Source: Roseivirga thermotolerans (GTDB taxonomy: Bacteria > Bacteroidota > Bacteroidia > Cytophagales > Cyclobacteriaceae). Taken from it: 64,000 bases of DNA. The notes beneath the pieces were generated by a model. That model saw only the letters and a program-made list of their open reading frames with translations. It did no database searches and was not told the origin of the DNA. Position 1 is the first letter of the stretch; every line of letters begins with the position of its first letter. A program made the position numbers and the translations under genes. Location of the stretch: NCBI RefSeq assembly GCF_014653175.1, contig NZ_BNAG01000003.1, forward strand, positions 248,001 through 312,000. Reading direction: 5' to 3'. Below, piece after piece: positions 7,339 through 17,960 of the stretch.

Positions 7339-8174
7339 ATATTACACCATTAGAAATTAGACAAAAGGAGTTCGAAAAGAACTTTAGAGGTTATGACAAA
7401 GACGAAGTCAAAGCCTTTTTGAATTCGCTTTCCCTGGAGTGGGAGAAGCTCAACGACCTGAATAAGGAGTTGAAATTTAAGTTGGAAGCAGCGCAAGAAG
7501 AAGTGAAAAAACTACGTGAAGTAGAAAACTCGCTTTTCAAAACGTTGAAAACAGCAGAAGATACCGGGGCCAATATGATTGAGCAAGCCACAAGGACTGC
7601 CGAGCTGCACATGCGCGAGACAGAGATGAAGGCCGATGCCCTGATGAGTGAGGCTAAATCCAGAGCCAAGTCGATTATCGAAGATGCTGAAGATAAGGCG
7701 CGTATGATTGTGGACGATATGGAAGATGAGATTCGTCAGTTAGAGCAGGTGTTCAGAAGCTTGGATGCCAACAAATCGTCTTTAATGAGCGATTTGAAAA
7801 TGCTGGCTGAAGATATTCTTTCAAAACTCAGCCGACACGAAGATTTTCCGGCCGACATTAAACCCCACCTCAAAAAAGCAAAGGAGTTAGCAAGGGAGGT
7901 CAATGACAATGTGGCTCCCGTAGATGTGAATAAAATCATCGCCCACAACGAGAAAAAAGAAGCAGAGGCCAGCATTGATGAAATGGTGGAAGATTCTGAC
8001 GATGAGGAAACCATTGCTATGGTAGAGGCCATTGATGAGGCCCCGGAAGCCGAAACTCAAAAAGAGGAAAAGGTGGAAGAAGAGCCCAAAGCCAAAACAC
8101 CTAAAGAAGAACAAATGGTTGAAGAAACCACTGAGAAGAAAGAGAAAGGTTCTTTTTTCGATCAGTTTGATTGA
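7335..8174 (+). CDS. DivIVA-domain coiled-coil protein
   Basis: 279 aa. The N terminus (ITPLEIRQKEFEKNFRGYD, then KDEVKAFLNSL) is the DivIVA domain, which in other bacteria binds curved membranes or poles and recruits division or growth proteins. Residues about 30-160 are a long coiled coil rich in Ala, Glu and Lys. From about residue 200 the chain is strongly acidic and repetitive in Glu, Lys and Pro, ending GSFFDQFD. The start codon sits within the WD40 stop. DivIVA is best known from Gram-positives, so its partner here is unknown; the WD40 protein is the obvious candidate by inference. Confidence 0.85.
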   Translation: MNITPLEIRQKEFEKNFRGYDKDEVKAFLNSLSLEWEKLNDLNKELKFKLEAAQEEVKKLREVENSLFKTLKTAEDTGANMIEQATRTAELHMRETEMKADALMSEAKSRAKSIIEDAEDKARMIVDDMEDEIRQLEQVFRSLDANKSSLMSDLKMLAEDILSKLSRHEDFPADIKPHLKKAKELAREVNDNVAPVDVNKIIAHNEKKEAEASIDEMVEDSDDEETIAMVEAIDEAPEAETQKEEKVEEEPKAKTPKEEQMVEETTEKKEKGSFFDQFD

Positions 8175-8257
8175 TTCAATTAGCTCACTTCATAGCATAG
8201 ATGGTGTATTCACTGTCGAATGAGTGAGGATATTCATTCCAATATTTAAACGAATCG

Positions 8258-8623
8258 ATGAACAAAGATATCGTTGCACTGGAAGGCATGGAGTTCTATG
8301 CCTTTCATGGTTTTTATGAAGAGGAGAGAGAAAAAGGCAATTATTTTGTGGTGGATGTTGCCCTCACTACTTCTTTCGAAAAGGCCGCTGAAACCGATGA
8401 ACTTTCCGGTACCGTCAACTACGAAGAACTGCATGCGCTAGTGAAAGCCGAAATGGAAATCCCAACCAAGCTATTGGAGCGCGTGGCCGGCAGAATTATT
8501 GAAAAATGCTTCGAGCAGTTTCCAACAGCTTCAGAAGTGAAGGTGTCTGTAGCCAAGAAAAATCCGCCTATTGATGCTAAAATTGAGCAATCCAAGATAA
8601 CGATGATCCGGGCACGTAAATAG
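8258..8623 (+). CDS. folB: dihydroneopterin aldolase
   Basis: Folate-pathway enzyme that cleaves 7,8-dihydroneopterin to 6-hydroxymethyl-dihydropterin and glycolaldehyde in the cytoplasm. 121 aa, normal for FolB. Recognisable parts are VALEGMEFYAFHGFYEEER at the N terminus, SGTVNYEELHALVK in the middle (catalytic Glu region), LLERVAGRIIEKCF, and the C-terminal strand VAKKNPPIDAKIEQ. It follows the DivIVA gene by 83 bases on the same strand; no promoter is obvious in that gap. Confidence 0.92.
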   Translation: MNKDIVALEGMEFYAFHGFYEEEREKGNYFVVDVALTTSFEKAAETDELSGTVNYEELHALVKAEMEIPTKLLERVAGRIIEKCFEQFPTASEVKVSVAKKNPPIDAKIEQSKITMIRARK

Positions 8624-8667
8624 TCCGTGATTTTGTCATTCCCGTCCCGAAAAAAATCGGGAAGAAT

Positions 8668-8764
8668 CCCCAAACCCTTTTCAAAACAATTGAGACTCCC
8701 GATCAGGTCGGTGATGATGATCCAATTGAAATTTGGGGTTTGTTCAACCTAAAAAGGTTTTTGT
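8668..8764 (+). terminator. stem-loops after folB, possible terminator
   Basis: CCCCAAA at 8668-8674 pairs with TTTGGGG at 8732-8738, with CAATTG at 8687-8692 and 8723-8728 as an inner stem. A smaller hairpin, AACCT/AGGTT at 8746-8759, is followed by a T run. A separate CCCGA/TCGGG hairpin lies at 8646-8661. The stretch opens with GTCATTCCCG, an ending seen in many dispersed repeats. It lies between the folB stop and the mobile element. Confidence 0.4.
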
Positions 8765-8810
8765 CCCGACTTGACGGAGATATCTATCCCGCTTAATCAT
8801 GACTTTCATA

Positions 8811-8820
8811 ATTAAGTTTT
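8811..8820. repeat. target-site duplication of copy 1, left (right copy 8968-8977)
   Basis: ATTAAGTTTT directly abuts the left end of the element and recurs exactly at its right end. A 10-bp duplication marks this as a transposition product. Confidence 0.85.
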
Positions 8821-8967
8821 AGGGTTACTCATTTAGATCGCATTTGTTAGATCCAGTATACTAGCCACAAGCTGTGTCCTCACAACGTGATTTAACAGCC
8901 ATTTGTGAGGGCACAAACGGAGGCAAGGTTCAGAAATATACTTCTTGCGACTTAAATAAGTAACCCT
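8821..8967 (+). mobile_element. 147-bp MITE-like element, copy 1
   Basis: The element begins AGGGTTACTC and ends AGTAACCCT. The outer 22 bases of each end are inverted repeats with 19 matches. It is flanked by a perfect 10-bp direct repeat, ATTAAGTTTT, at 8811-8820 and 8968-8977. It has no coding capacity. Against copy 2 (28599-28745) it is the same length with 9 mismatches and no gaps. Two internal arms, TGTGTCCTCACA at 8873-8884 and TGTGAGGGCACA at 8904-8915, are complementary with one G-T pair. It sits 58 bases before the helicase start codon. No transposase of this type is in the window. Confidence 0.85.
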
Positions 8968-9025
8968 ATTAAGTTTTGAACAGCATTTTTAAAAACAATC
9001 CGCCATCTTGCGGCCTTTCTAAGAA

Positions 9026-10909
9026 ATGACTCCAGCTCAGGCCGAAATATCCAAGCTTATTGATCTTCTGAAAATAGAGAAGGACGAAGACTATGCTCAG
9101 TATCAACAAAAGATGCTGAACACTTCTCTTGAAGAAAGAAGAAGACAAGGGGTTACCTGGTATCCGGTGGTAAAGGCCAATCATTTCATAAGTACCGGTG
9201 AGCGCTGGACCGTTGAATTGGAACGTACTTCACACCTAGAGCAAAATCACGCCTTTCAGTCGGGAGCGGTGGTCAGTTTGTTTCTAGGGCAAGATGAAAG
9301 GGATAGCACTACTCAAGGGGTTATCAGCTTTATTCGGGATAACAAAATGAGGATTGTCATTAACGATGACGATTTGCCCGATTGGATTGGCGATGGAAAG
9401 CTGGGAGTGAACCTGCTCTTCGATGAAGGCAGCTACCGCGAAATGCACAAAGCACTTATGGAAGTGCTGAAGGCAGAAAACGGACGGCTGGCTGAGTTGC
9501 GAGAGATAGTTTACGGGGCTAACCGGCCGGCCTTTAAAAGCGGATATGATTTTCAGTCAGTCAACCTTAATGAAAGTCAGAATCAGGCACTCACTAAGGT
9601 TTTTAATGCCAGAGATGTGGCGATAATTCACGGCCCACCAGGCACAGGCAAAACCACCACCCTTGTCAATGCCATTAAAGAAGTGGTAAAAACCGAGCGA
9701 CAGGTGCTGGTTTGTGCCCAAAGCAACGCGGCAGTAGACCTGCTGGTTGAAAAGCTAGATGTACTTGGAATAGAAGTGCTGCGGCTCGGCCACCCGGCTC
9801 GCCTTACTCCGGAGGTAATCGAAAATAGTCTGGATGTCAAAATAGCTAACCATGCTTATTTTAAGGAGCTTCGCGAGATAAGAAAGCGCTCGGAGGAGTA
9901 TCGGAGAATGGCCGGCAAGTATAAAAGAAACTTCGGCCATGAGGAGCGTATGCAGCGCAATCTGCTTAGGAAAGAAGCTAAAATGCTCAAAGAAGATGCC
10001 GATAGAATTGAGCAGCACATTACCGAAGATCTCATGGATAGGGCGCAAGTCATAGCCTGTACTTTGGTCGGTTCAACCCATTCGCTGGTCAATGATCGTG
10101 TCTTCAAAACCGTTTTTATAGATGAGGCTTCCCAAGCGCTTGAGCCTGCGGCATGGATTGCCATTCGCAAGGCCTATCGTGTAGTAATGGCAGGAGATCA
10201 CCAGCAGCTACCGCCCACCGTCAAGTCGATAAAGGCAGCAAAGGAGGGACTAGAGAACACTCTGTTTGAGAAGGCAATAGGATTACCTGAAGCTACTGTT
10301 ATGCTGCAAACGCAGTATCGAATGCACCCGGATATTATGAGGTTTTCCAGCGATTACTTCTATGAAGGAAAACTCAAAACGGCCAGTGAGGTACTGGAGC
10401 GCACCTATGCAATGGAGTTGGAGCACTTTGTGTTTATAGATACTGCCGGAGCAGGATTCACCGAAAAGGTGAAAAAGCAGACCCTTAGTACATACAATGA
10501 AGAAGAGGCCGCTTTGTTGGTCAAACATTTAGGTGACAACATCTTACCGGATACTTCCATTGGCATCATTGCTCCATACAAAGCCCAGGTAGAGGTTTTG
10601 CATGACTTAATAAAGGACAACCCTGCTTTTGATGAGGTACGGGAGAACATTACCATCAATTCAGTCGATGCGTTTCAGGGGCAGGAGAGAGATATCATCT
10701 ATATCAGCTTAACCCGGTCTAATGATAAAAGTGAAATTGGGTTTCTCAAAGAGTACCGAAGAATGAATGTGGCCATGACTCGTGCCAGAAATCAGTTGGT
10801 GATTATTGGTGATTCAGGAACTCTTGGTAAAGACAACTTCTACAATGCGGTACTGGACTACGCCCAGAAAACGGGAGGATATAAAAGCGCTTTTGAGTTT
10901 TTGTATTGA
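9026..10909 (+). CDS. superfamily 1 DNA/RNA helicase (Upf1/IGHMBP2-like)
   Basis: 627-aa ATP-dependent helicase of the Upf1-like SF1B group. An N-terminal beta-rich domain (about 1-180) precedes Walker A HGPPGTGKTTT (near residue 202), motif Ia CAQSNAAVDLL, DEAS within FIDEASQALEPA (near 366), GDHQQLPPTVKS, the QYRMHP motif, DAFQGQERDIIYISLTRSN and the arginine-finger motif RRMNVAMTRARNQL. All motifs are intact. Its last 83 bases (10827-10909) are the 5'-most of several copies of this gene tail in the next 5 kb, which marks the gene end as an insertion site. The copy here is functional and ends in TGA. Confidence 0.92.
   Translation: MTPAQAEISKLIDLLKIEKDEDYAQYQQKMLNTSLEERRRQGVTWYPVVKANHFISTGERWTVELERTSHLEQNHAFQSGAVVSLFLGQDERDSTTQGVISFIRDNKMRIVINDDDLPDWIGDGKLGVNLLFDEGSYREMHKALMEVLKAENGRLAELREIVYGANRPAFKSGYDFQSVNLNESQNQALTKVFNARDVAIIHGPPGTGKTTTLVNAIKEVVKTERQVLVCAQSNAAVDLLVEKLDVLGIEVLRLGHPARLTPEVIENSLDVKIANHAYFKELREIRKRSEEYRRMAGKYKRNFGHEERMQRNLLRKEAKMLKEDADRIEQHITEDLMDRAQVIACTLVGSTHSLVNDRVFKTVFIDEASQALEPAAWIAIRKAYRVVMAGDHQQLPPTVKSIKAAKEGLENTLFEKAIGLPEATVMLQTQYRMHPDIMRFSSDYFYEGKLKTASEVLERTYAMELEHFVFIDTAGAGFTEKVKKQTLSTYNEEEAALLVKHLGDNILPDTSIGIIAPYKAQVEVLHDLIKDNPAFDEVRENITINSVDAFQGQERDIIYISLTRSNDKSEIGFLKEYRRMNVAMTRARNQLVIIGDSGTLGKDNFYNAVLDYAQKTGGYKSAFEFLY
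10827..10909 (+). repeat. helicase gene tail, copy A (left border of the island)
   Basis: The 83 bases ending at the helicase stop codon recur at 15998-16080 with only two differences: A to C in GGAGGATATA, and TGA to TAA at the stop. Shorter tail remnants lie at 13353-13377 and 13444-13460. Copy A is the end of the intact gene and forms the left border of the A+T-rich segment. Confidence 0.85.
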
Positions 10910-10940
10910 TTGCTTTTACGTTGGAAACGCGATATCCATA

Positions 10941-10963
10941 AGTCCTCGTTACAAACGAAGACT
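10941..10963. repeat. hairpin just inside the island's left end
   Basis: AGTCCTCGTT and AACGAAGACT form a 9-10 bp stem with one mismatch and loop ACA. A related 23-base hairpin stands at 13413-13435, at a similar distance after tail copy B1. Upstream of both, GAAACGC-ATA-like sequence is shared, so this looks like a common left end of two modules. Confidence 0.5.
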
Positions 10964-11235
10964 AGTTAGTGAGTAAAGGCCACACCAATAATGGCCGGTA
11001 CCAAAAGATGATTACAATCCTAAAAGGACGCTGAGCTTGCGTAAGACTCAAAGTAAGTACGAATTTCAAGCTAACGAATATCTATAGAAATAGCATTCTT
11101 ATCATGCGATTGAAATAATTAATGTTGAATTATTTGACTATAAAAAAAAATAATTAGGTGAATTAAAAAAAACAACATACCTTTCGTTACTTTCAATTCC
11201 GGAAGAAGAAAGAAGGAAGTTCATCCTGCCGTTTG
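10964..11235. other. A+T-rich non-coding stretch, presumed promoter region
   Basis: No gene, tRNA or clear promoter is visible. It is very A+T-rich with long A runs around 11141-11175. Weak -7-like sequences (TACCTTTC near 11180) occur but lack a matching upstream TTTG. It probably holds the promoter of the peptide and lipoprotein genes that follow. Confidence 0.4.
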
Positions 11236-11373
11236 GTGCCCGAACAAAAGCACACAATACTGATTACCAGAATTCGAATTCTCTTAATCCTTACCGTGTT
11301 TGCTACTGCTCTGAGGAGCAACAAAATGGGGGTTACCGAAAACCCTGGAGAGAGTAAGGTTGATTTTACATAA
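11236..11373 (+). CDS. possible 45-aa membrane-targeted peptide
   Basis: A GTG-started frame of 45 codons (TTG at 11233 also possible). After a polar start (PEQKHT) comes a basic-hydrophobic segment, LITRIRILLILTVFATAL, and a hydrophilic end, SNKMGVTENPGESKVDFT. This leader-like layout resembles the short peptides that accompany propeller lipoproteins in Bacteroidota, but I cannot assign a family. Its stop overlaps the TTG start of the next peptide gene by 14 bases. It could also be a chance reading frame or a decayed gene. Confidence 0.3.
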   Translation: MPEQKHTILITRIRILLILTVFATALRSNKMGVTENPGESKVDFT

Positions 11374-11581
11374 TCAGAATGAAAAAATCATAACTTTTAT
11401 CGTATTAATTGGCTTCTTCCTAGTTCCTAATCTTTCAAATGCAGACTGCACCTTAACAACTGCAGAGGGCACAGATGGAAGGTGTTTTTTGAGTGGAGGA
11501 GAATACAAGTGTAAAGCCAGAGAAGAAGATAAGCACTGTTTCGTTCCCACTGGAGAAGTAGAGGAAGAGGCCGGGCAATAA
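11360..11581 (+). CDS. secreted four-cysteine peptide
   Basis: 73 codons from a TTG at 11360; no ATG is in frame. Residues 8-27 are a signal peptide (KIITFIVLIGFFLVPNLSNA) with likely cleavage after Ala28. The mature part of about 45 aa holds four cysteines spaced C-x11-C-x8-C-x8-C and ends in an acidic tail, VEEEAGQ. Small secreted peptides next to propeller lipoproteins (the NVEALA arrangement) are known in Bacteroidota; this one shares the layout but not clearly the motif, so the family link is inference. A strong hairpin follows it. Two disulfides are possible, and a CPGC lipoprotein is encoded downstream. Confidence 0.55.
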   Translation: MILHNQNEKIITFIVLIGFFLVPNLSNADCTLTTAEGTDGRCFLSGGEYKCKAREEDKHCFVPTGEVEEEAGQ

Positions 11582-11614
11582 TTCAGTAGTCCCGATATAA
11601 CGCAAGTCAATTCG

Positions 11615-11640
11615 AATGAAGGGCATAGAAGCCCTTCATT
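11615..11640 (+). terminator. hairpin between peptide and DUF4221-like genes
   Basis: AATGAAGGGC and GCCCTTCATT form a perfect 10-bp stem with loop ATAGAA, followed by ATTATTTAAT. It may end or attenuate transcription after the peptide gene, so that the peptide is made in excess over the lipoproteins downstream. Confidence 0.65.
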
Positions 11641-11666
11641 ATTATTTAATAGTCACGAAAACTTTC

Positions 11667-12830
11667 ATGAAGAACCAATTACTTATAGCAACAATATCTT
11701 TGTTTTTCCTTATCTGCTGTGATAACAAGAACACAGAGGAACTGACTTATATCGGTGATGACAATATTGAAGTTCAGGTTGTAGGAACTAAAAGTTTCCC
11801 TCTGGATTCCATAACAAGCTCAACTTCACTCATAGAGTACTTTGAAGTTGAGAATAACGGTTATTTGGGACTATTAAATACCAATTCGAATTCCATTTAC
11901 ATATATGACTATGATAGTGAATCCATTTTAAAAATATTATCATTCCCTATTCAGGGTCCGAACTCTGTTGGCAGAATTGAAGGCTTTCATTTTCACAATT
12001 TTGATAGTCTATTTATTCATTCTCAAAATTCTCTTAGACTTTACCTGAGTGATACTACTAAAACTATTAAAAGAAGATATGACCTTAGTAATTCAAAAGG
12101 ACTCGTGCCTTCAAGCTCCTTCTCAAATGATATGCCTATGTTCTTATACAAGAACAATTATTATATCAATGCATGGGGTCATCAAAAAGAATACTACAAT
12201 AACACAGAATACCCTAACAGCTTATTACTAAAGTTAGACTTAGAGACAGGAAATACGGAAAGAATCTTATCCTATCCTAGTACTTATGTGGGTACGGGGG
12301 TTTGGGGTATCCAATTTCACTTTATGTGGAATGCTTATGATTCGAAAACTGGTGAGATCTCGCTAAGTTTTCCAATAGATAGGAACCTTTACTTTTTCAA
12401 TCAGGCTGGTGAACTGAGTAATTTTAATGCTAGCTCAAATCAAATTGATAAAATTCGGCCACTATCCGAAAAAGATAGGTACCTGCCAAGCGATCCTTTT
12501 CAGGAGCTAAAAGTCTTCCAAACACAAAGCACCTATTACAGTGTTTATTACGACCCGTATAACAAACTATGGCTCAGGTTTATTAATGTGAAGATGAATG
12601 AAGATGATTTTGACTCCAAGCACCCAATTAGAAGTAGAAATCAAAACTTGAACGTTGTTATGCTCGACTCTACTAAAAGTAGAATTGGTGAAGTGAAATT
12701 GAGTCGTGATTTTAAGTACTTCTCTAATCCAACATTTATAAATGAAAAAGGTGTTCACATCAACGTGGGCAAGTTTTCGATTGAAGATTCATTACATTTT
12801 GACATTATTAAATTCATTAAAAATGACTAA
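11667..12830 (+). CDS. DUF4221-like propeller lipoprotein
   Basis: 387 aa. The start at 11667 gives a lipoprotein signal peptide (KNQLLIATISLFFLICC, lipobox before Cys at 17 or 18); an in-frame ATG at 11616 lies inside the hairpin and is rejected. The mature chain has repeated strand pairs of the kind YIYDYDSESILKIL and SLLLKLDLETG, and resembles DUF4221 proteins of Bacteroidota, thought to be propeller-like envelope lipoproteins of unknown role. The coding sequence is A+T-rich (14 of 60 bases are G/C at 11881-11940, against 28 of 60 at 9721-9780 in the helicase), in keeping with horizontal acquisition. Its stop overlaps the next start by 8 bases. Confidence 0.7.
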   Translation: MKNQLLIATISLFFLICCDNKNTEELTYIGDDNIEVQVVGTKSFPLDSITSSTSLIEYFEVENNGYLGLLNTNSNSIYIYDYDSESILKILSFPIQGPNSVGRIEGFHFHNFDSLFIHSQNSLRLYLSDTTKTIKRRYDLSNSKGLVPSSSFSNDMPMFLYKNNYYINAWGHQKEYYNNTEYPNSLLLKLDLETGNTERILSYPSTYVGTGVWGIQFHFMWNAYDSKTGEISLSFPIDRNLYFFNQAGELSNFNASSNQIDKIRPLSEKDRYLPSDPFQELKVFQTQSTYYSVYYDPYNKLWLRFINVKMNEDDFDSKHPIRSRNQNLNVVMLDSTKSRIGEVKLSRDFKYFSNPTFINEKGVHINVGKFSIEDSLHFDIIKFIKND

Positions 12831-13284
12831 AAAGGTAAGCATATATCTAATTGTAACATTTTCAATTTGCCTTCTTATTTCTTGCTCCAATTCATCAAAC
12901 CGGAATGTCATTCAATCTTTAGATGACATGGGCATTATTCTCGAACCAAATATTTCAAGAGTGTTTTTGATTCCTAATGCTGGTTGCCCGGGATGTACCA
13001 CCTCGGCAGAAAGTTTTATGGTGCTGAATTTAGAGTCACCCGAAGTTATTTACATTCTAACGAACTTTACTTCCGTCAAAAACATTACATCAAAATTGGG
13101 AAAAGATGTAATTGAATCTTTTAATGTGCATTTAGATACTGAAAATATCTTCTATACCAATGGTGTCATCACCCCATATCCAATAATTTATCATATAGAA
13201 GGAGGTAGAATTACTAAATCCGACACGGTTAGTCCATATTCACCTAATAGCATTGCATCACTCGAGTTACACATAAATGAATAA
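12823..13284 (+). CDS. CPGC-motif lipoprotein
   Basis: 153 aa. The signal peptide KKVSIYLIVTFSICLLISC ends in a lipobox with the lipid-bearing Cys at about 20. After a short linker comes the strand RVFLIPNAGCPGCTTSAE, where CPGC stands at the start of a helix as in thioredoxin-fold proteins, and later a PYPIIYHIEGG segment that may supply the cis-proline loop (TPYP). I do not recognise a named family. The ATG at 12823 overlaps the DUF4221-like stop, so the two are translationally coupled; the longer frame from 12742 is rejected. It could be a thiol-disulfide protein acting on the four-cysteine peptide encoded upstream (inference). Confidence 0.6.
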   Translation: MTKKVSIYLIVTFSICLLISCSNSSNRNVIQSLDDMGIILEPNISRVFLIPNAGCPGCTTSAESFMVLNLESPEVIYILTNFTSVKNITSKLGKDVIESFNVHLDTENIFYTNGVITPYPIIYHIEGGRITKSDTVSPYSPNSIASLELHINE

Positions 13285-13352
13285 GACGAAGATATTTGAA
13301 ACCCCGCCTTTTCATTAATTTTCAGGCTAGGCTACAAAAAAGGGAAGGCCAC

Positions 13353-13377
13353 AAGCGCTTTTGAGTTTTTGTATTGA
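13353..13377 (+). repeat. helicase gene tail, remnant B1
   Basis: 25 bases identical to the last 25 bases of the helicase gene (10885-10909), including the TGA. Similarity fades upstream (GGGAAGG against GGGAGG) and resumes downstream, where GAAACGC and AGTCCT blocks and a 23-base hairpin (13413-13435) parallel the sequence after copy A. It separates two gene modules of opposite orientation. Confidence 0.75.
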
Positions 13378-13443
13378 AACCTAGGGCCTGAGCTAGAAAC
13401 GCAATAGTCACTAGTCCTTATTGCAGATTAGGGCTATATAGGT

Positions 13444-13460
13444 GCTTTTGAGTTTATTGA
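13444..13460 (+). repeat. helicase gene tail, remnant B2
   Basis: GCTTTTGAGTTTATTGA equals the final 21 bases of the helicase gene less an internal TTGT. It lies only 67 bases after B1 with the hairpin between them, as if a very short module had inserted. On its own the match could be chance; next to B1 it is more convincing. Confidence 0.5.
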
Positions 13461-13485
13461 GGGCCAAAATATTCTTAACTGGTTC

Positions 13486-14334
13486 TCACTTCTTTTTGGG
13501 TTTTAAAACCTCATTCTCCCTCAGAAACTGAGACTTATGGTATTCTTCTGGGAGAACGTCCAGATATCCGATAAAGTAACCTAAGTCATACCATGTTTGT
13601 GAGATACTTTTTGAACCATCTCTGGCCTTTTGAGGCTTTGGTATCCCGTCTTTTAATAAAAAAGCCTCAAACCTATTCTTTCTTTTGTTTTCAAACTCCA
13701 CAATACAGGCTAGTGTTTCTGTGTGTATATCAAAGTACCAATAGGCATAACTTGGTTTAGTTCCTAAATGTACATTCAACGAACTTAAACTTGAATCATA
13801 CTCTTTAAGAGAAAGGTGAAAGAACCTGTCTGAATTACTTATCTGAATAATAAGGATGTCATTTTTAAGATCGTAAGCCATGTTGTTAGAATGCGTTTTG
13901 TTTTCTGAGGACTTGTTAATAAAGTGACCCATGGAGAAGTATCTGGTTGAGTCAAACTTGTGTTTAATTCTGACGTCATTCTCAGTTTCTTCTAACAGAA
14001 ATTCTTTTTGTTTATGGTGAAGGTATACCCATTTCTTTCGGTTCGGTAGCTCAAAATCGGGCGTTCTGGACTCAATAACTTTAAGTGCACTATCTGAGAT
14101 TTCGATTTTGTGGCTTTGGTTTCGGGTATTCAGTATTAAAAGAGATTCTTCAATAAGGAGGTAGTTTTGAACTTTAGTGTTGAAAGATAAGATGTGAATA
14201 GTTTCTCCTGAGTTTGCTACTAGTCGGATTGATTTTTCGATGACAATCAACTGGCGATCGTTTTTCAGGTTTATTTTGTGAGGGTCATTCACCAATAAGA
14301 GGCCAATAACAAGACTTAAATAAATATGGATCAT
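13486..14334 (-). CDS. hypothetical secreted protein
   Basis: 282 aa. A short hydrophobic N terminus (IHIYLSLVIGLLLV) suggests a signal peptide without a lipobox. The rest is rich in beta-type sequence (NYLLIEESLLILNT, DILIIQISNSDRFFHL, YAYWYFDIHTETLACIV) and ends in basic residues, KPKKK. I do not recognise a family. Strand pairs that alternate with turns would suit a small propeller or beta-sandwich. It lies 136 bases downstream of the propeller lipoprotein gene on the same strand and is probably transcribed with it. Confidence 0.6.
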   Translation of the reverse strand: MIHIYLSLVIGLLLVNDPHKINLKNDRQLIVIEKSIRLVANSGETIHILSFNTKVQNYLLIEESLLILNTRNQSHKIEISDSALKVIESRTPDFELPNRKKWVYLHHKQKEFLLEETENDVRIKHKFDSTRYFSMGHFINKSSENKTHSNNMAYDLKNDILIIQISNSDRFFHLSLKEYDSSLSSLNVHLGTKPSYAYWYFDIHTETLACIVEFENKRKNRFEAFLLKDGIPKPQKARDGSKSISQTWYDLGYFIGYLDVLPEEYHKSQFLRENEVLKPKKK

Positions 14335-14470
14335 TTGAATGTGTTTTCTTTTAGAAGTTCTGTGATGTGTTCTTTTTCATGCGGGACATTAGCTAATGGT
14401 ATATGACAACTTATATCCTGTGTTTTCGGCTCTTTTGTACTGGGGAAAAAGAGTACAAATTTTAAATGGC

Positions 14471-15466
14471 TTAATTTTCCTTACTCGATATGTGATACTT
14501 GACTATTGACCCATTGGAAGAATTGAACCCTATTAAGTATTTAAGATCAGCAGTGATGGAAAAGCAGTTGAAGGCAAAATATCCTTCAAAAAATATCTTT
14601 CTTGTCACTGTAATTTTATTGTTTTTATCCAGAATGGCCTCAATAATAAAGTTCTTCTTTACGCCATTCTTTGAACCTAAGGGAGGCAAAGAAAAAAAGA
14701 TGTGGTTGTCAACAATATCAATGTCATAGAATGTGGTTTGAGCGTATGCGGTATTTGCAGTGCTGGCATTTATCTTTCCTTCTATATCAAGTCCAGCCAG
14801 CCAATCTTGAACCACCGGAATATGGTCTAAAGAGTTTTCGCCAAGTAGAATTCCTTGATCATCATAGATGTCCACATTCAATCGGTTCAACAGATTAGCA
14901 GTAACTATTTTTTGTTCAATTACTCGGACGTGCATATCGGGAAATCCATCTTCCTTAATCAAGGGTTTGCCAAAATCTCTCTTGCTATTGGTTATAGAGT
15001 ACTTTGTAAATGGTAATTCATGCTGGCCAATGACTTTGCCAATTATATCAGAGCCTAACACATCAAAGTCTCCGGAGTTAAGCTTAATGTTTATGGTTTT
15101 CAGTAGATCGCCATTCAATGAATAGTTCAATAGTTTGCCGCCCCAAAGATCCTGCACAAATAAGGTTGAATCGGCCATTGCAATATTTTTTATACCCTTT
15201 ATTTCGTTTGGTCCGGATCCAGCCTCACCGATTGTCCTTAAGAATTGAAAGTTACTGTCGAGGACAAACACTCGGTTTGAGTTTTTGTCGCTAAAAAACA
15301 TGAATTCATCATGCAGTTCAATATCCCCTATTTGACCGAAGAGTATTGAGTCGTTTAGCTCGTAGAGTTCCGTAATCAGCTTAGCCTCTGTTATTGGAAT
15401 TGGTTTTTCTTCAGAACATGAAACGAAAGGAGTCCATAACAACAATAAGAGAAACTTATAGTACAT
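14471..15466 (-). CDS. 6-bladed beta-propeller lipoprotein (BF3164/TolB-like)
   Basis: 331 aa. The start at 15466 gives a lipoprotein signal, YYKFLLLLLWTPFVSC, with Cys at about 17; upstream in-frame starts (15511, 15574) put a long polar stretch before it and are less likely. Blades can be read as repeated units: GDIELHDEFMFFSD with RVFVLDSNFQFLRTIG, then GSGPNEIKGIKNIAMADST with KLLNYSLNGDLLKTI. The GxGPxE turn is typical of Bacteroidota 6-bladed propeller lipoproteins. These are frequent in accessory regions and have no settled function. It is encoded on the strand opposite to the peptide module. Confidence 0.8.
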   Translation of the reverse strand: MYYKFLLLLLWTPFVSCSEEKPIPITEAKLITELYELNDSILFGQIGDIELHDEFMFFSDKNSNRVFVLDSNFQFLRTIGEAGSGPNEIKGIKNIAMADSTLFVQDLWGGKLLNYSLNGDLLKTINIKLNSGDFDVLGSDIIGKVIGQHELPFTKYSITNSKRDFGKPLIKEDGFPDMHVRVIEQKIVTANLLNRLNVDIYDDQGILLGENSLDHIPVVQDWLAGLDIEGKINASTANTAYAQTTFYDIDIVDNHIFFSLPPLGSKNGVKKNFIIEAILDKNNKITVTRKIFFEGYFAFNCFSITADLKYLIGFNSSNGSIVKYHISSKEN

Positions 15467-15997
15467 CTGTTTTATCCATTCCGAGGTATCTTGAGTTTTA
15501 AATGTTAACATATTGATTCTTTTTGTAAATGAAACAAGCCCCTCATATACAGAGCCGACTGGGCTGCAGCTCACCTTTCAATCCCCGGTCAAATGCCTTA
15601 TGCTATACCATTCGGCCGGACTACATTCAGTTTTTTGTGGAACATATTTGACATAGGGTTCACATATTGCTCTATCTCACGCAAATGAAGAAGTGATAAA
15701 TGGAGTTAAGGTCATCATATAAAAGGAAGGTGTAACAAACCCTGACAGACAAGTTGCTTAGTAAAGCATTCCATCAGCAGAGAATTGCTGGCACTTACAT
15801 TAGTGTACCTTAATTAAGCCGCCTAAACCAATTAACTCTAGTGTCACTCAAGGACTTTGTAAGTACTATTGATTTAACACGTTAGTCTAATTTATCTGTT
15901 TTTTTAGGAAAAACTAAGAGAAGCGGTTCTAAAATAATAGAAGTTGATGTATGGTCTTCATCTATAGGTGATGCTTTATTACTAAAATATTTCTTGA
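15467..15997. other. non-coding stretch at the island's right end
   Basis: I see no credible gene. It should contain the promoter of the propeller lipoprotein gene but shows no clear TAnnTTTG box. A stretch at about 15570-15625, read on the minus strand, looks faintly tRNA-like but lacks a T-loop and acceptor stem. The final part (15905-15997) is A+T-rich without recognisable similarity. Confidence 0.4.
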
Positions 15998-16080
15998 GTA
16001 AAGACAACTTCTACAATGCGGTACTGGACTACGCCCAGAAAACGGGAGGCTATAAAAGCGCTTTTGAGTTTTTGTATTAA
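15998..16080 (+). repeat. helicase gene tail, copy C (right border of the island)
   Basis: An 83-base direct repeat of 10827-10909 with 81 matches and no gaps, ending in its own stop (TAA). Upstream of it the similarity ends abruptly. Immediately downstream lies the stop codon of the convergent FAD oxidoreductase gene. It is most simply the original end of the helicase gene, displaced by whatever inserted at 10.9 kb. Confidence 0.85.
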
Positions 16081-16085
16081 TGTTT

Positions 16086-16979
16086 CTAGAAGCTCTCCTG
16101 AATCAAATCGAAATTAATAACAGCACCTGCCACAGTGCCAGAAGATACGGCTACCGATACGGCTCTCATGTTAGAAGCATCGCCACATGCATAAACGCCT
16201 GGTACGGAGGTCATTTGCTTTTGATCTACTTTGATTAGACCCTGTTCCGTAATTTCACAGCCCAGACTTGTCGCAATATTGGTGCCTTGTTCAAAATGCG
16301 GACTATGGTAGAGTGCATTGATTTGGTGTGTATTGCCGTCTTTTAGAACTACTGCTGAGATTTGGCCATTCTCTTGCTCTATTCGTTCAATTTCTGTTTC
16401 TACAAGAGCGATGTTGTTTCTTTTTACTGCGGTTAGCTGCTCAGTAGGCAAATCGATTTTACCATTGGTAAAAATGGTGAGTTCCTGGGTTAGATTTGAG
16501 ATGAGTTGTGCATAGTGAAAAGCTTTGTCGCCATTGGCTAGTATACCTGTCGGTTGCCCATGAAACTCATAACCGTGGCAGTATGGACAATGGATGACCG
16601 ATTTTCCCCAGCATTCGGCAACTCCGGGAATATCGGGTAGAATGTCTTTAATGCCAGCAGCTAGTACAAGCCTCTTGCTGGTAAAAGAGCCTTTGTCTGT
16701 TTCTACAGTGAAACCCTCAGGTGCTTTTTCGGCACTCAATGCCAAGCCGTCCAAAAACTCTACGGTTTTGTATTGTTGAACTTGCTCCTTCGCAATTGCA
16801 CTGATTTCAGCAGGTTTTCGACCATCATGTGTAAGGAAATTTTGGGAGTGCGGAGTAAAGCGATTGCATGGCTTTCTGCTATCAACCACCAGCACTTTTC
16901 TCAACGATCGGCCTAAGGCCAAAGCTGCTGAAAGGCCGGCATAACTGCCTCCAATAATAATAACCTCAAATCTTTGCAT
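16086..16979 (-). CDS. NAD(P)/FAD-dependent oxidoreductase, thioredoxin-reductase fold
   Basis: 297 aa. FAD-binding Rossmann motif VIIIGGSYAGLSAALALGRS at the N terminus, CPYCHGYE at residues 131-138 as the redox-active disulfide on the NADPH domain, and a C-terminal second FAD motif GVYACGDASNMRAVSVAVS. This is the TrxB-like group, shorter than classical thioredoxin reductases. The substrate is unknown; no thioredoxin gene is adjacent. The gene has its own promoter with an overlapping 19-base palindrome, so it is probably switched by a repressor, perhaps a redox sensor (inference). Confidence 0.9.
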   Translation of the reverse strand: MQRFEVIIIGGSYAGLSAALALGRSLRKVLVVDSRKPCNRFTPHSQNFLTHDGRKPAEISAIAKEQVQQYKTVEFLDGLALSAEKAPEGFTVETDKGSFTSKRLVLAAGIKDILPDIPGVAECWGKSVIHCPYCHGYEFHGQPTGILANGDKAFHYAQLISNLTQELTIFTNGKIDLPTEQLTAVKRNNIALVETEIERIEQENGQISAVVLKDGNTHQINALYHSPHFEQGTNIATSLGCEITEQGLIKVDQKQMTSVPGVYACGDASNMRAVSVAVSSGTVAGAVINFDLIQESF

Positions 16980-16994
16980 CCTTTAGCTTTTAGA

Positions 16995-17025
16995 CAAAGG
17001 TAGTAGCTTAAATTATAATTGCAAC
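16995..17025 (-). promoter_or_regulatory. promoter of the FAD oxidoreductase gene
   Basis: On the minus strand, GTTG at 17025-17022, 19 bases, then TACCTTTG at 17002-16995. The -7 box is a perfect TAnnTTTG and the spacing is ideal. Transcription would begin near 16988, about 9 bases before the start codon. Confidence 0.7.
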
Positions 17026-17039: not shown

Positions 17040-17960
17040 TTATTTCGCTTGGTATGCTTGAACCTTTTTGCTGATCGCTTCAACCAAAACCTCTACCGCT
17101 GCCGGCTTCAGTCTAAACCATAGCTCCGGTTCAATAAGCTCCATTTCAATAACAGCCAATTCATTATTGTTATCACGGATAATGTCTACTCTGGCATAGT
17201 AGGGTTGTGGATCGCAGGCGGCCACTGCTTTTTCGGCAAAGGCAATTTCTTCCAAAGTAGGTTGATATTCATGTACCGTTCCGCCAAAATCGTCCTGGAC
17301 TCGGAAGTCACCGGGTTTAGCAATTTTTAGTACGGCATGGGTAAACTGGCCTCCCATTACCATTAGCGATACTTCACCCTTTTCCACCACATTCTTCTGA
17401 AAGGGCTGAAGCATCATGGCTTCTTGCTGAATCAGCTTTTGAAAAATGGGCTCGTATTCATGAATGTTGGAGAGGTCGATTCTGTAAGTGTGCCTTGCTG
17501 CTCCGGAGATACAGGGTTTCAGTATGCAATCTGTCCACTCTTTCTGAGCAAAGAGAGCAGCCAGGTTGGTCACCACTCCAATTTCCACATAGTGAGTTTC
17601 AGGAATGTTTATACCCTTAACCTGAAGATCCTTGAGGTAGTGCTTATCCATATTCCACTGAATCAATTGGTATGGATTGATCATTTCGGTGGCTTCACTC
17701 ACTTTTTTGAGCCAGCCTTTCCATTCTTCGTACCGATCGAAATAGTCCCAGGTGGTGCGGAAAAGTACTGCTTTAGTAGAGTACCAATCGAAGTCTGGGT
17801 CGCTCCAGCTTTTTCTTGTCACTTTAAAGCCCTTGCTTTGCAGTGCTTCTACCACAAGACCATCTTCCTTAAGAATATTTTGTACGTACCAGCCGGGATT
17901 TTCTGGGGCCACATAGCGGTTGTCTGTCAATACCACTATGTCGAATGATTTCTCTTTCAA
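17040..17960 (-). CDS. ATP-grasp enzyme (DcsG/RimK-like)
   Basis: 306 aa. ATP-grasp ligase or cyclase: an N-terminal domain with VVLTDNRYVAPE, then ATP-binding lysines in CILKPCISGAARH and the C-terminal metal-binding region YARVDIIRDNNNELAVIEMELIEPELWF, where the E-x-ELIEPELWF end is typical of the group containing the D-cycloserine enzyme DcsG. The reaction here is unknown; family members form amide or related bonds through an acyl-phosphate. It follows the carbamoyltransferase gene by 16 bases on the same strand, so the two probably share a pathway. Confidence 0.8.
   Translation of the reverse strand: MKEKSFDIVVLTDNRYVAPENPGWYVQNILKEDGLVVEALQSKGFKVTRKSWSDPDFDWYSTKAVLFRTTWDYFDRYEEWKGWLKKVSEATEMINPYQLIQWNMDKHYLKDLQVKGINIPETHYVEIGVVTNLAALFAQKEWTDCILKPCISGAARHTYRIDLSNIHEYEPIFQKLIQQEAMMLQPFQKNVVEKGEVSLMVMGGQFTHAVLKIAKPGDFRVQDDFGGTVHEYQPTLEEIAFAEKAVAACDPQPYYARVDIIRDNNNELAVIEMELIEPELWFRLKPAAVEVLVEAISKKVQAYQAK

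What the first reader, a model, noticed from the sequence alone, without database searches (positions are those of the whole stretch)
10827..16080. Accessory island bordered by 83-bp copies of the helicase gene tail
The last 83 bases of the helicase gene (10827-10909) return at 15998-16080 with two differences, one of which swaps TGA for TAA. The DNA between is A+T-richer and holds only lipoprotein-type accessory genes; right after copy C comes the convergent oxidoreductase. So an insertion at the 3' end of the helicase gene appears to have brought its own gene tail and left the host intact. Tail-restoring insertion is known for integrases at tRNA genes, but here the target is protein-coding and no recombinase is present.
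Basis: partly seen in the sequence, partly recalled or inferred. Interest (0 to 1): 0.82.

Follow-up and report, generated by a model that had tools for sequence, protein, structure and literature searches.

The report
Island inserted with foreign gene tail
A block of accessory genes sits behind a helicase gene between two copies of that gene's last 83 bases, and related genomes indicate that such blocks arrive from other strains by homologous recombination on one side and a non-homologous join on the other, bringing their own gene ending and pushing the old one downstream.

Summary
The repeat is real: 83 bp with 2 differences, plus two short inner pieces. The genus is Roseivirga (Bacteroidota). 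The helicase/right-neighbour junction is a cargo hotspot: 7 bp in G002, other cargo elsewhere. A second helicase tail downstream of the intact gene was also found in four other genomes (G001, G019, G340, G249). In the three cases whose tails still align in frame (window, G019, G340), 30 of 32 differences are synonymous, so the tails diverged as working genes in different genomes: the insert brought a foreign tail. Displaced tails vary in length (83-476 bp), which argues against a fixed att core. In G001 and G340 the displaced helicase tail lies directly behind a displaced tail of the right-hand gene, as expected if a donor segment (helicase tail, cargo, neighbour tail) was joined end to end and entered by one homologous crossover, or by homology-facilitated illegitimate recombination. 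G059 shows the empty site matching G019; Algoriphagus antarcticus has cargo like G340's there without a scar. The window's own case rests on two base differences and on analogy. The architecture is known for Rhs and T6SS loci; a conserved helicase is a new setting.

The parts
9026..10909 (+). IGHMBP2-family (TIGR00376) helicase gene H, intact; the anchor gene
   Evidence: ORF; NCBIfam TIGR00376 at 7e-129, above cut-off
10827..10909 (+). Tail copy A, the present 3' end of H (inferred donor-derived)
   Evidence: 81/83 identical to copy C
10940..10967 (+). REP-like palindrome after the H stop
   Evidence: similar palindromes elsewhere in G000, G013, G015, G016, G018; within 3 mismatches of the 29-base form it occurs once in G000
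10971..11027 (-). Fossil of the 5' end of an AcrB-type RND transporter gene
   Evidence: 79% to the RND gene start in L105, 80-85% to stretches in L107 and L106; the L105 gene is PF00873 at 2.3e-118
11187..11397 (+). Leader shared with lipoprotein cassettes at other loci
   Evidence: 76% over 219 columns to L104, 84% over 61 to L105
11360..11581 (+). Small secreted-type peptide ORF (real start probably the ATG a few codons inside; by reading)
   Evidence: ORF list; no Pfam or NCBIfam match
11616..12830 (+). DUF4221 lipoprotein-type gene
   Evidence: PF13970 at 1e-16
12742..13284 (+). Small lipoprotein-type gene (start probably near 12826; by reading)
   Evidence: ORF; no match above a cut-off
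13353..13377 (+). Tail piece B, older displaced tail
   Evidence: 25/25 bp; post-stop similarity 2/1000 shuffles
13432..13460 (+). Tail piece D, eroded
   Evidence: 0/1000 shuffles reach its score
13486..14334 (-). Island ORF, 282 aa, unknown family
14471..15574 (-). 6-bladed beta-propeller (DUF5128) lipoprotein-type gene
   Evidence: PF17170 at 4.2e-13
15992..15998 (.). Right junction: DNA without known relatives meets the H tail in a short similar stretch
   Evidence: alignment
15998..16080 (+). Tail copy C, displaced (inferred native) H tail, 5 bp before the convergent oxidoreductase stop
16086..16979 (-). Convergent pyridine-nucleotide-disulphide oxidoreductase, right flank
   Evidence: PF07992 at 6.9e-30
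17040..17960 (-). ATP-grasp gene, right neighbour of H in many genomes of the genus

Best explanation
The island entered from a related genome whose helicase locus already held this cargo. Incoming DNA that began inside the donor's helicase tail recombined homologously with the resident helicase, so the gene now ends in the donor's tail. The other end of the incoming DNA was joined without homology to a point inside the helicase tail, either beforehand by end-joining into a circle that then entered by a single crossover, or at integration by homology-facilitated illegitimate recombination. The resident's own tail was pushed downstream as copy C, next to its native neighbour. Earlier rounds in the donor lineage left pieces B and D. 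Shown: tail copies; empty and filled sites; synonymous divergence of the tails in G019 and G340; neighbour-tail/helicase-tail junctions in G001 and G340. Inferred: that the window case is of the same kind, its direction (A donor, C native), the circle or one-sided step, and the route of DNA entry.
For: Second H tails downstream of an intact H in 5 genomes: G000 and G001 (2 of 21 scanned), G019 (1 of 20 loci), G340 and G249 (2 of 80 preselected genomes). Differences between tails in whole codons: window 2/2, G019 23/25, G340 5/5 synonymous, expected fraction about 0.2 (P 0.034, 1e-13, 4e-4). Displaced tail lengths vary: 83, about 110-120, 476, 144, 225 bp. In G001 a degenerate ATP-grasp tail (E 2.5e-8) and in G340 a 55-bp tail of the DUF4924 gene (5 of 6 differences synonymous) stand directly before the displaced H tail, 10 bp apart in G340. 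Empty sites: G059 matches G019 from the left end of the displaced tail onward; G002 has 7 bp between H and the next gene. Algoriphagus antarcticus (L124) has a 67% relative of the G340 cargo at the same junction without a scar, collinear into the neighbour's tail. By experiment in E. coli, 56 of 60 clones gave the PCR product of a gene-end duplication and 14 sequenced ones had 109-950 bp, ascribed to circular DNA entering by single crossover (PMC3240628, section 12).
Against: In the window only two differences separate A and C (P 0.034), and no neighbour-gene tail was recognised left of copy C: 15575-15997 has no match in the 18 other genomes of the genus, none in the flanks, and a 38-codon open stretch there has no convincing relative in the fetched loci. 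None of the fetched loci has the window's cargo behind H. The freshest tail (C) lies furthest right, so stepwise stacking in this genome alone does not fit; the island must have come whole. In G001 and G249 differences are only mildly biased to third positions (15/27, 17/34), which fits old decaying copies but does not prove foreign origin there.
Confidence: 0.74

Rival explanations
1. Site-specific integration at the helicase 3' end by a recombinase acting in trans: the two tails are attL and attR, and the island is a recombinase-less satellite.
For: Insertion next to the stop codon, a restored tail, low G+C cargo, several tail copies. Integration at 3' ends of protein genes is known for such enzymes (recalled).
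Against: No fixed core: left limits of the displaced tail range from 83 to 476 bp. Junction with a neighbour gene's tail in G001 and G340 is not an att product. The five island ORFs show no recombinase family; a 19-base exact piece of the tail is absent from IMG/VR, and the island DNA has no match in the plasmid collection. Relatives of the last 100 residues of H do occur on 249 plasmid and 4 phage records, all under 60% identity. The genome was not searched for recombinases.
Confidence: 0.08
2. Tandem duplication inside one genome (unequal or template-switch): the segment from helicase tail to neighbour tail doubled, and one cargo copy was later lost or replaced.
For: The neighbour-tail/helicase-tail junctions in G001 and G340 are also what a tandem duplication gives; in G001 the junction lies in a short similarity.
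Against: Copies made in one genome start identical, and the displaced one would then decay at all codon positions; G019 and G340 differ almost only at synonymous sites. In G019 and G340 one interval has cargo and the other none, and sister G059 is empty. A duplication in a donor followed by recombination with an empty allele remains possible.
Confidence: 0.13
3. Assembly error or mixed-strain assembly.
For: G019 (110 contigs) and G249 (720 contigs) are drafts; the tails of G019 differ as strain variants would.
Against: Five separate assemblies; the scar lies in a contig of 4.58 Mb in G001, 1.43 Mb in G340 and 848 kb in G000. Degenerate copies (G001, G249, B, D) cannot be strain variants.
Confidence: 0.03

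Closest known systems
Rhs C-terminal displacement (Jackson et al. 2009, PMC2935791; passages read)
   Same: A new 3' part arrives with downstream genes; the old gene end is left as a fragment downstream; fragments of variable length; single crossover of a circular intermediate proposed.
   Different: There the exchanged tip is variable and is the part that changes the protein; here the helicase tail is conserved and only an anchor, and the cargo is unrelated to it. The circles there are proposed to close by homologous recombination; here G001 and G340 show neighbour tail joined to helicase tail.
T6SS effector-immunity displacement in Vibrio cholerae (Kirchberger et al. 2017, PMC5361080; passages read)
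   Same: Homology on one side, illegitimate joint on the other (their proposal); old 3' ends displaced in series.
   Different: Effector loci, not a housekeeping gene junction.
Homology-facilitated illegitimate recombination and single-crossover gene-end duplication in E. coli (PMC3240628; passages and section 12 read)
   Same: Gene-end duplications of 109-950 bp around foreign DNA, the size range of four of the five scars here.
   Different: Laboratory conjugation; HFIR products as such generally carry deletions, not duplications.
Integrase-less HGT hotspots between core genes (Oliveira et al. 2017, PMC5635113; passages read)
   Same: Variable cargo between two conserved genes, many without mobile elements.
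   Different: They propose double recombination in both flanks; here one-sided events leave readable scars.
CIME/ICE-type tail-restoring insertion (recalled)
   Same: Restored gene 3' end and direct repeats.
   Different: Fixed att core (tested, not met) and a recombinase (none on the island).

Membership tests
Displacement by homologous plus illegitimate recombination (Rhs/T6SS type) | Intact gene upstream, its displaced 3' fragment downstream of new genes | tested here: met
   window, G001, G019, G340, G249
Displacement by homologous plus illegitimate recombination (Rhs/T6SS type) | Displaced fragments of variable length | tested here: met
   83, about 110-120, 476, 144, 225 bp
Displacement by homologous plus illegitimate recombination (Rhs/T6SS type) | New 3' part is foreign | tested here: met
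   23/25 and 5/5 synonymous differences in G019 and G340; in the window 2/2, P 0.034, weak alone; inconclusive in G001 and G249
Displacement by homologous plus illegitimate recombination (Rhs/T6SS type) | Exchanged end encodes a variable toxin or effector | tested here: not met
   the helicase tail is conserved; cargo is lipoprotein-type genes, toxin-antitoxin-type genes, a permease. It works like these systems but is not filed as one.
Classical HFIR | Short or no homology at the illegitimate joint | tested here: inconclusive
   short similarities seen at the joints of the window, G001, G019 and G340; not tested against chance
Classical HFIR | RecA dependence and uptake of linear DNA | not testable with these tools
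   needs experiment
Site-specific integrative element (att sites at a gene 3' end) | Fixed core shared by independent insertions | tested here: not met
   variable left limits; neighbour-tail junctions
Site-specific integrative element (att sites at a gene 3' end) | Recombinase on the element | tested here: not met
   no recombinase family among the five island ORFs
Site-specific integrative element (att sites at a gene 3' end) | Recombinase in trans | not tested
   genome-wide family search not run

The most novel reading that the evidence does not exclude
The junction behind this helicase is a recurrent docking place where accessory genes spread between strains without any recombinase, as end-joined circles cut from the donor's own helicase-cargo-neighbour segment; the neighbour-tail/helicase-tail scar is a readable fossil of such circles and would show how the circular intermediates postulated for displaced Rhs tips can close.
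Probability: 0.3. Interest if true: 0.72.

Novelty: new variant of a known kind. Interest (0 to 1): 0.55.

Why it matters
Many hotspots of gene gain hold no integrase, and recombination at flanking core genes is inferred mainly from population statistics. Here single events left a scar that names the anchor gene, the donor tail, the point of the non-homologous joint and, in two genomes, the other end of the donor fragment. Such tail scars can be counted in any genome set and give a direct test of one-sided entry against scarless double crossover.

Tried and rejected
Fixed att core: rejected on variable left limits. Intragenomic duplication: rejected for G019 and G340 on synonymous divergence, left as rival for G001, G249 and in part the window. 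Right-neighbour tail left of copy C in the window: looked for with blastn, tblastx and a 38-codon open stretch, nothing found. Leftward extension of piece B: not significant (300 of 1000 shuffles). Palindrome after the H stop as the end of a mobile element: no element seen. Rfam: nothing at gathering scores in 8000-17000. tRNA target: no tRNA in the window. Family-wide protein search (390 genomes, 347 with a match): its list was cut off, so second tails could not be read from it; one search repeated it on 80 genomes that I read as having two or more matches. Nine more of these (G008, G010, G012, G013, G027, G031, G033, G035, G036) had been scanned directly. G384 has a tail fragment at a contig start, not counted. 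Short matches of 21-27 bp in L121, L124, L128 and of 14-17 bp in L200, L203 were not counted as copies. Six of the 19 loci have the contig lengths of genomes already, and other overlaps may exist, so the scans are not added up. My first readings of the G340 right neighbour as TetR and of the ORF-431 repeat as tRNA-like were wrong (Pfam DUF4924; only the start of that ORF overlaps a tRNA-Cys gene). Paper searches: one on NVEALA peptides gave nothing useful; others (2 papers, neither on this, by title and abstract start; 0 papers) looked for earlier reports of such scars; besides that is all I searched.
Full report
What is there. The last 83 bases of the helicase gene H (9026-10909, TIGR00376 at 7e-129) recur at 15998-16080 with two differences, GGA/GGC and TGA/TAA. 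In the genome (G000, 4.2 Mb, 12 contigs) this is the only other strong match. Two shorter tail pieces lie inside: B at 13353-13377, 25 of 25 bp, and D at 13432-13460. The DNA between is A+T-rich and carries a small peptide ORF, a DUF4221 gene, a small lipoprotein-type gene, a 282-aa ORF and a DUF5128 six-bladed propeller gene. On contig C3, 718 ORFs were screened for tail copies within 15 kb; of the 8 intergenic hits, the two of H are the only isolated gene tails recognised, one 54-bp inverted match being unexplored.

The junction is a hotspot. Records named Roseivirga have the contig lengths of G011, G014 and G017, so the genus is Roseivirga. In 12 relatives the distance from the H stop to the next conserved gene (ATP-grasp; oxidoreductase in G016) is 7 (G002, empty), 283, 509, 530, 780, 784, 937, 956, 980, 1666, 2062 and 3019 bp. 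Cargo differs: a ParE-type toxin gene in G016 (PF05016), a 69-71-aa Zn-ribbon-like ORF (below cut-off) in G001, with like ORFs by reading in G017 and G018, and a 215-240-aa membrane-type ORF (by reading) in G003, G008, G010, G011. In G013, G007, G006, G004 and G015 the ATP-grasp gene is not within the stretch fetched behind H and lies elsewhere; in G013 the chromosome is broken exactly between H and the oxidoreductase. Outside the genus, a relative of the DUF4924 gene of G340 begins about 24-37 bp behind H in two Belliella and one Mongoliibacter (L122, L127, L126), and about 2072, 499 and 890 bp behind it in Anditalea, another Mongoliibacter and G384.

The same scar elsewhere. A second H tail downstream of an intact H was found in G001 (79% over 108 bp), G019 (476 bp, 94.7%), G340 (144 bp, 96.5%) and G249 (225 bp, 84%). 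Scans: 2 of 21 genomes, window included; 0 of 19 named loci; 1 of 20 loci; 2 of 80 preselected genomes. The scans overlap in part and short tails in distant relatives would be missed, so no overall rate is given. Cargo between the tails: a nucleotidyltransferase gene in G019 (PF01909), a DUF5128 propeller gene in G340 and a MacB/FtsX permease in G249, a CarboxypepD_reg-like gene (below cut-off) and the Zn-ribbon-like ORF in G001.

Foreign tails. If the copies had arisen inside one genome, the displaced one would decay at all codon positions. In G019, 23 of 25 differences are synonymous; in G340, 5 of 5 (in 4 codons); in the window, 2 of 2; the chance fraction is about 0.2 (P 1e-13, 4e-4, 0.034). 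So in G019 and G340 the two tails separated while both were working genes, in different genomes; in the window this is likely but weakly supported on its own. In the older copies of G001 and G249 the bias is weak (15/27 and 17/34 at third positions, P 0.014 and 0.033). For G019 the sister G059, a single-contig genome, has one H tail running straight into the flank that in G019 follows the displaced tail, and the match begins at the displaced tail's left end. Hence the displaced tail borders native DNA and the tail now on the gene came with the cargo. Base identity to G059 does not tell the two tails apart (400 and 403 of 476). That the same holds for A and C in the window is inferred from copy C's place 5 bp before the oxidoreductase.

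What joined to what. In G001 the displaced H tail is preceded at once by a degenerate copy of the end of the ATP-grasp gene, the conserved gene on the right. In G340 it is preceded, 10 bp away, by 55 bp of the end of the right-hand DUF4924 gene, 5 of 6 differences synonymous. In Algoriphagus antarcticus (L124) a relative of the G340 cargo (67%) lies between H and the DUF4924 gene without scar, and the DNA match to G340 runs through the cargo into the neighbour's tail and stops at the junction. The insert in G340 therefore looks like a donor segment H tail - cargo - neighbour tail whose two ends met. A circle closed by end-joining and entering by one crossover in H gives this; so does homology-facilitated illegitimate recombination with the joint upstream of the anchor. 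The data do not separate the two. G017 has only an 18-bp exact piece of the ATP-grasp tail inside its interval, perhaps a further remnant. In G019 and the window no neighbour tail is recognised; the insert of G019 ends in a dispersed repeat of roughly 50-80 bp, that of the window in DNA without known relatives.

History of the window's island. Right after the H stop come a REP-like palindrome and a fossil of the first codons of an RND transporter gene, then a leader. At G000:C4 an intact RND gene (PF00873) stands beside such a leader and a 395-aa lipoprotein-type ORF without a Pfam match; in G013:C3 the leader precedes a DUF4221 cassette (PF13970) near a membrane-fusion-type gene named by reading. 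So part of the cargo was probably once taken from such a locus and fused behind H. Piece B carries a post-stop stretch like that of A. Because the outermost tail C is the freshest, the composite island probably arrived whole in the last event.

Comparison with what is known. Displaced gene ends with single-crossover entry of circles were proposed for Rhs genes (PMC2935791, passages) and one-sided illegitimate entry for T6SS effectors (PMC5361080, passages); in E. coli, 56 of 60 clones gave the PCR product of a gene-end duplication and 14 sequenced ones had 109-950 bp (PMC3240628, section 12). Integrase-less hotspots between core genes are documented (PMC5635113, passages). New here, as far as my few searches show, are the setting (a conserved helicase as pure anchor), the recurrence in five genomes of one family, and the neighbour-tail junctions. 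I call it a new variant of a known kind.

Limits. The window's own case rests on two base differences and on analogy with G019 and G340. No donor for its cargo was found, recombinases and competence genes were not searched genome-wide, and joint microhomologies were not tested against chance.

Noticed in passing
G013: L031 around 2391 and L094 around 10468 (H 3' end and oxidoreductase 3' end): In a close relative (H 88% identical) the chromosome is broken and rejoined exactly between H and the oxidoreductase; each half now has other neighbours.
   Followed up: partly
G017: L033, 276-293 bp behind the H stop: An 18-bp exact piece of the ATP-grasp gene's tail lies inside the H/ATP-grasp interval, between two small ORFs; perhaps another insertion remnant.
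   Followed up: no
window 10940-10967; L109, L110, L111, L112, L113, L114, L115: Dispersed palindromes with a TTACAA or TTATAA core scattered in several Roseivirga genomes, in places several per 20 kb; REP-like.
   Followed up: partly
G019 L196, just left of the displaced tail: The insert of G019 ends in a dispersed repeat found at other places in G019 and G059.
   Followed up: no
G000:C4 (L105 6242-7862), G013:C3 (L104 3856-6256), L124 12038-12253: Small secreted-type peptides, lipoprotein-type genes (DUF4221 in L104) and small lipoproteins form cassettes at other loci too, two of them beside efflux-type genes; a similar small peptide precedes the propeller gene in Algoriphagus antarcticus (by reading).
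   Followed up: partly
G000:C3 495310-497740: A repeat of about 60 bp in three copies around two short reading frames.
   Followed up: no
window 15886-15997: A 37-codon open stretch runs in frame into the displaced helicase tail C; no relative found in the fetched loci.
   Followed up: partly
window 8624-9025: A 400-bp stretch without a clear gene between the FolB-type gene and H; this interval varies widely in length among relatives.
   Followed up: no
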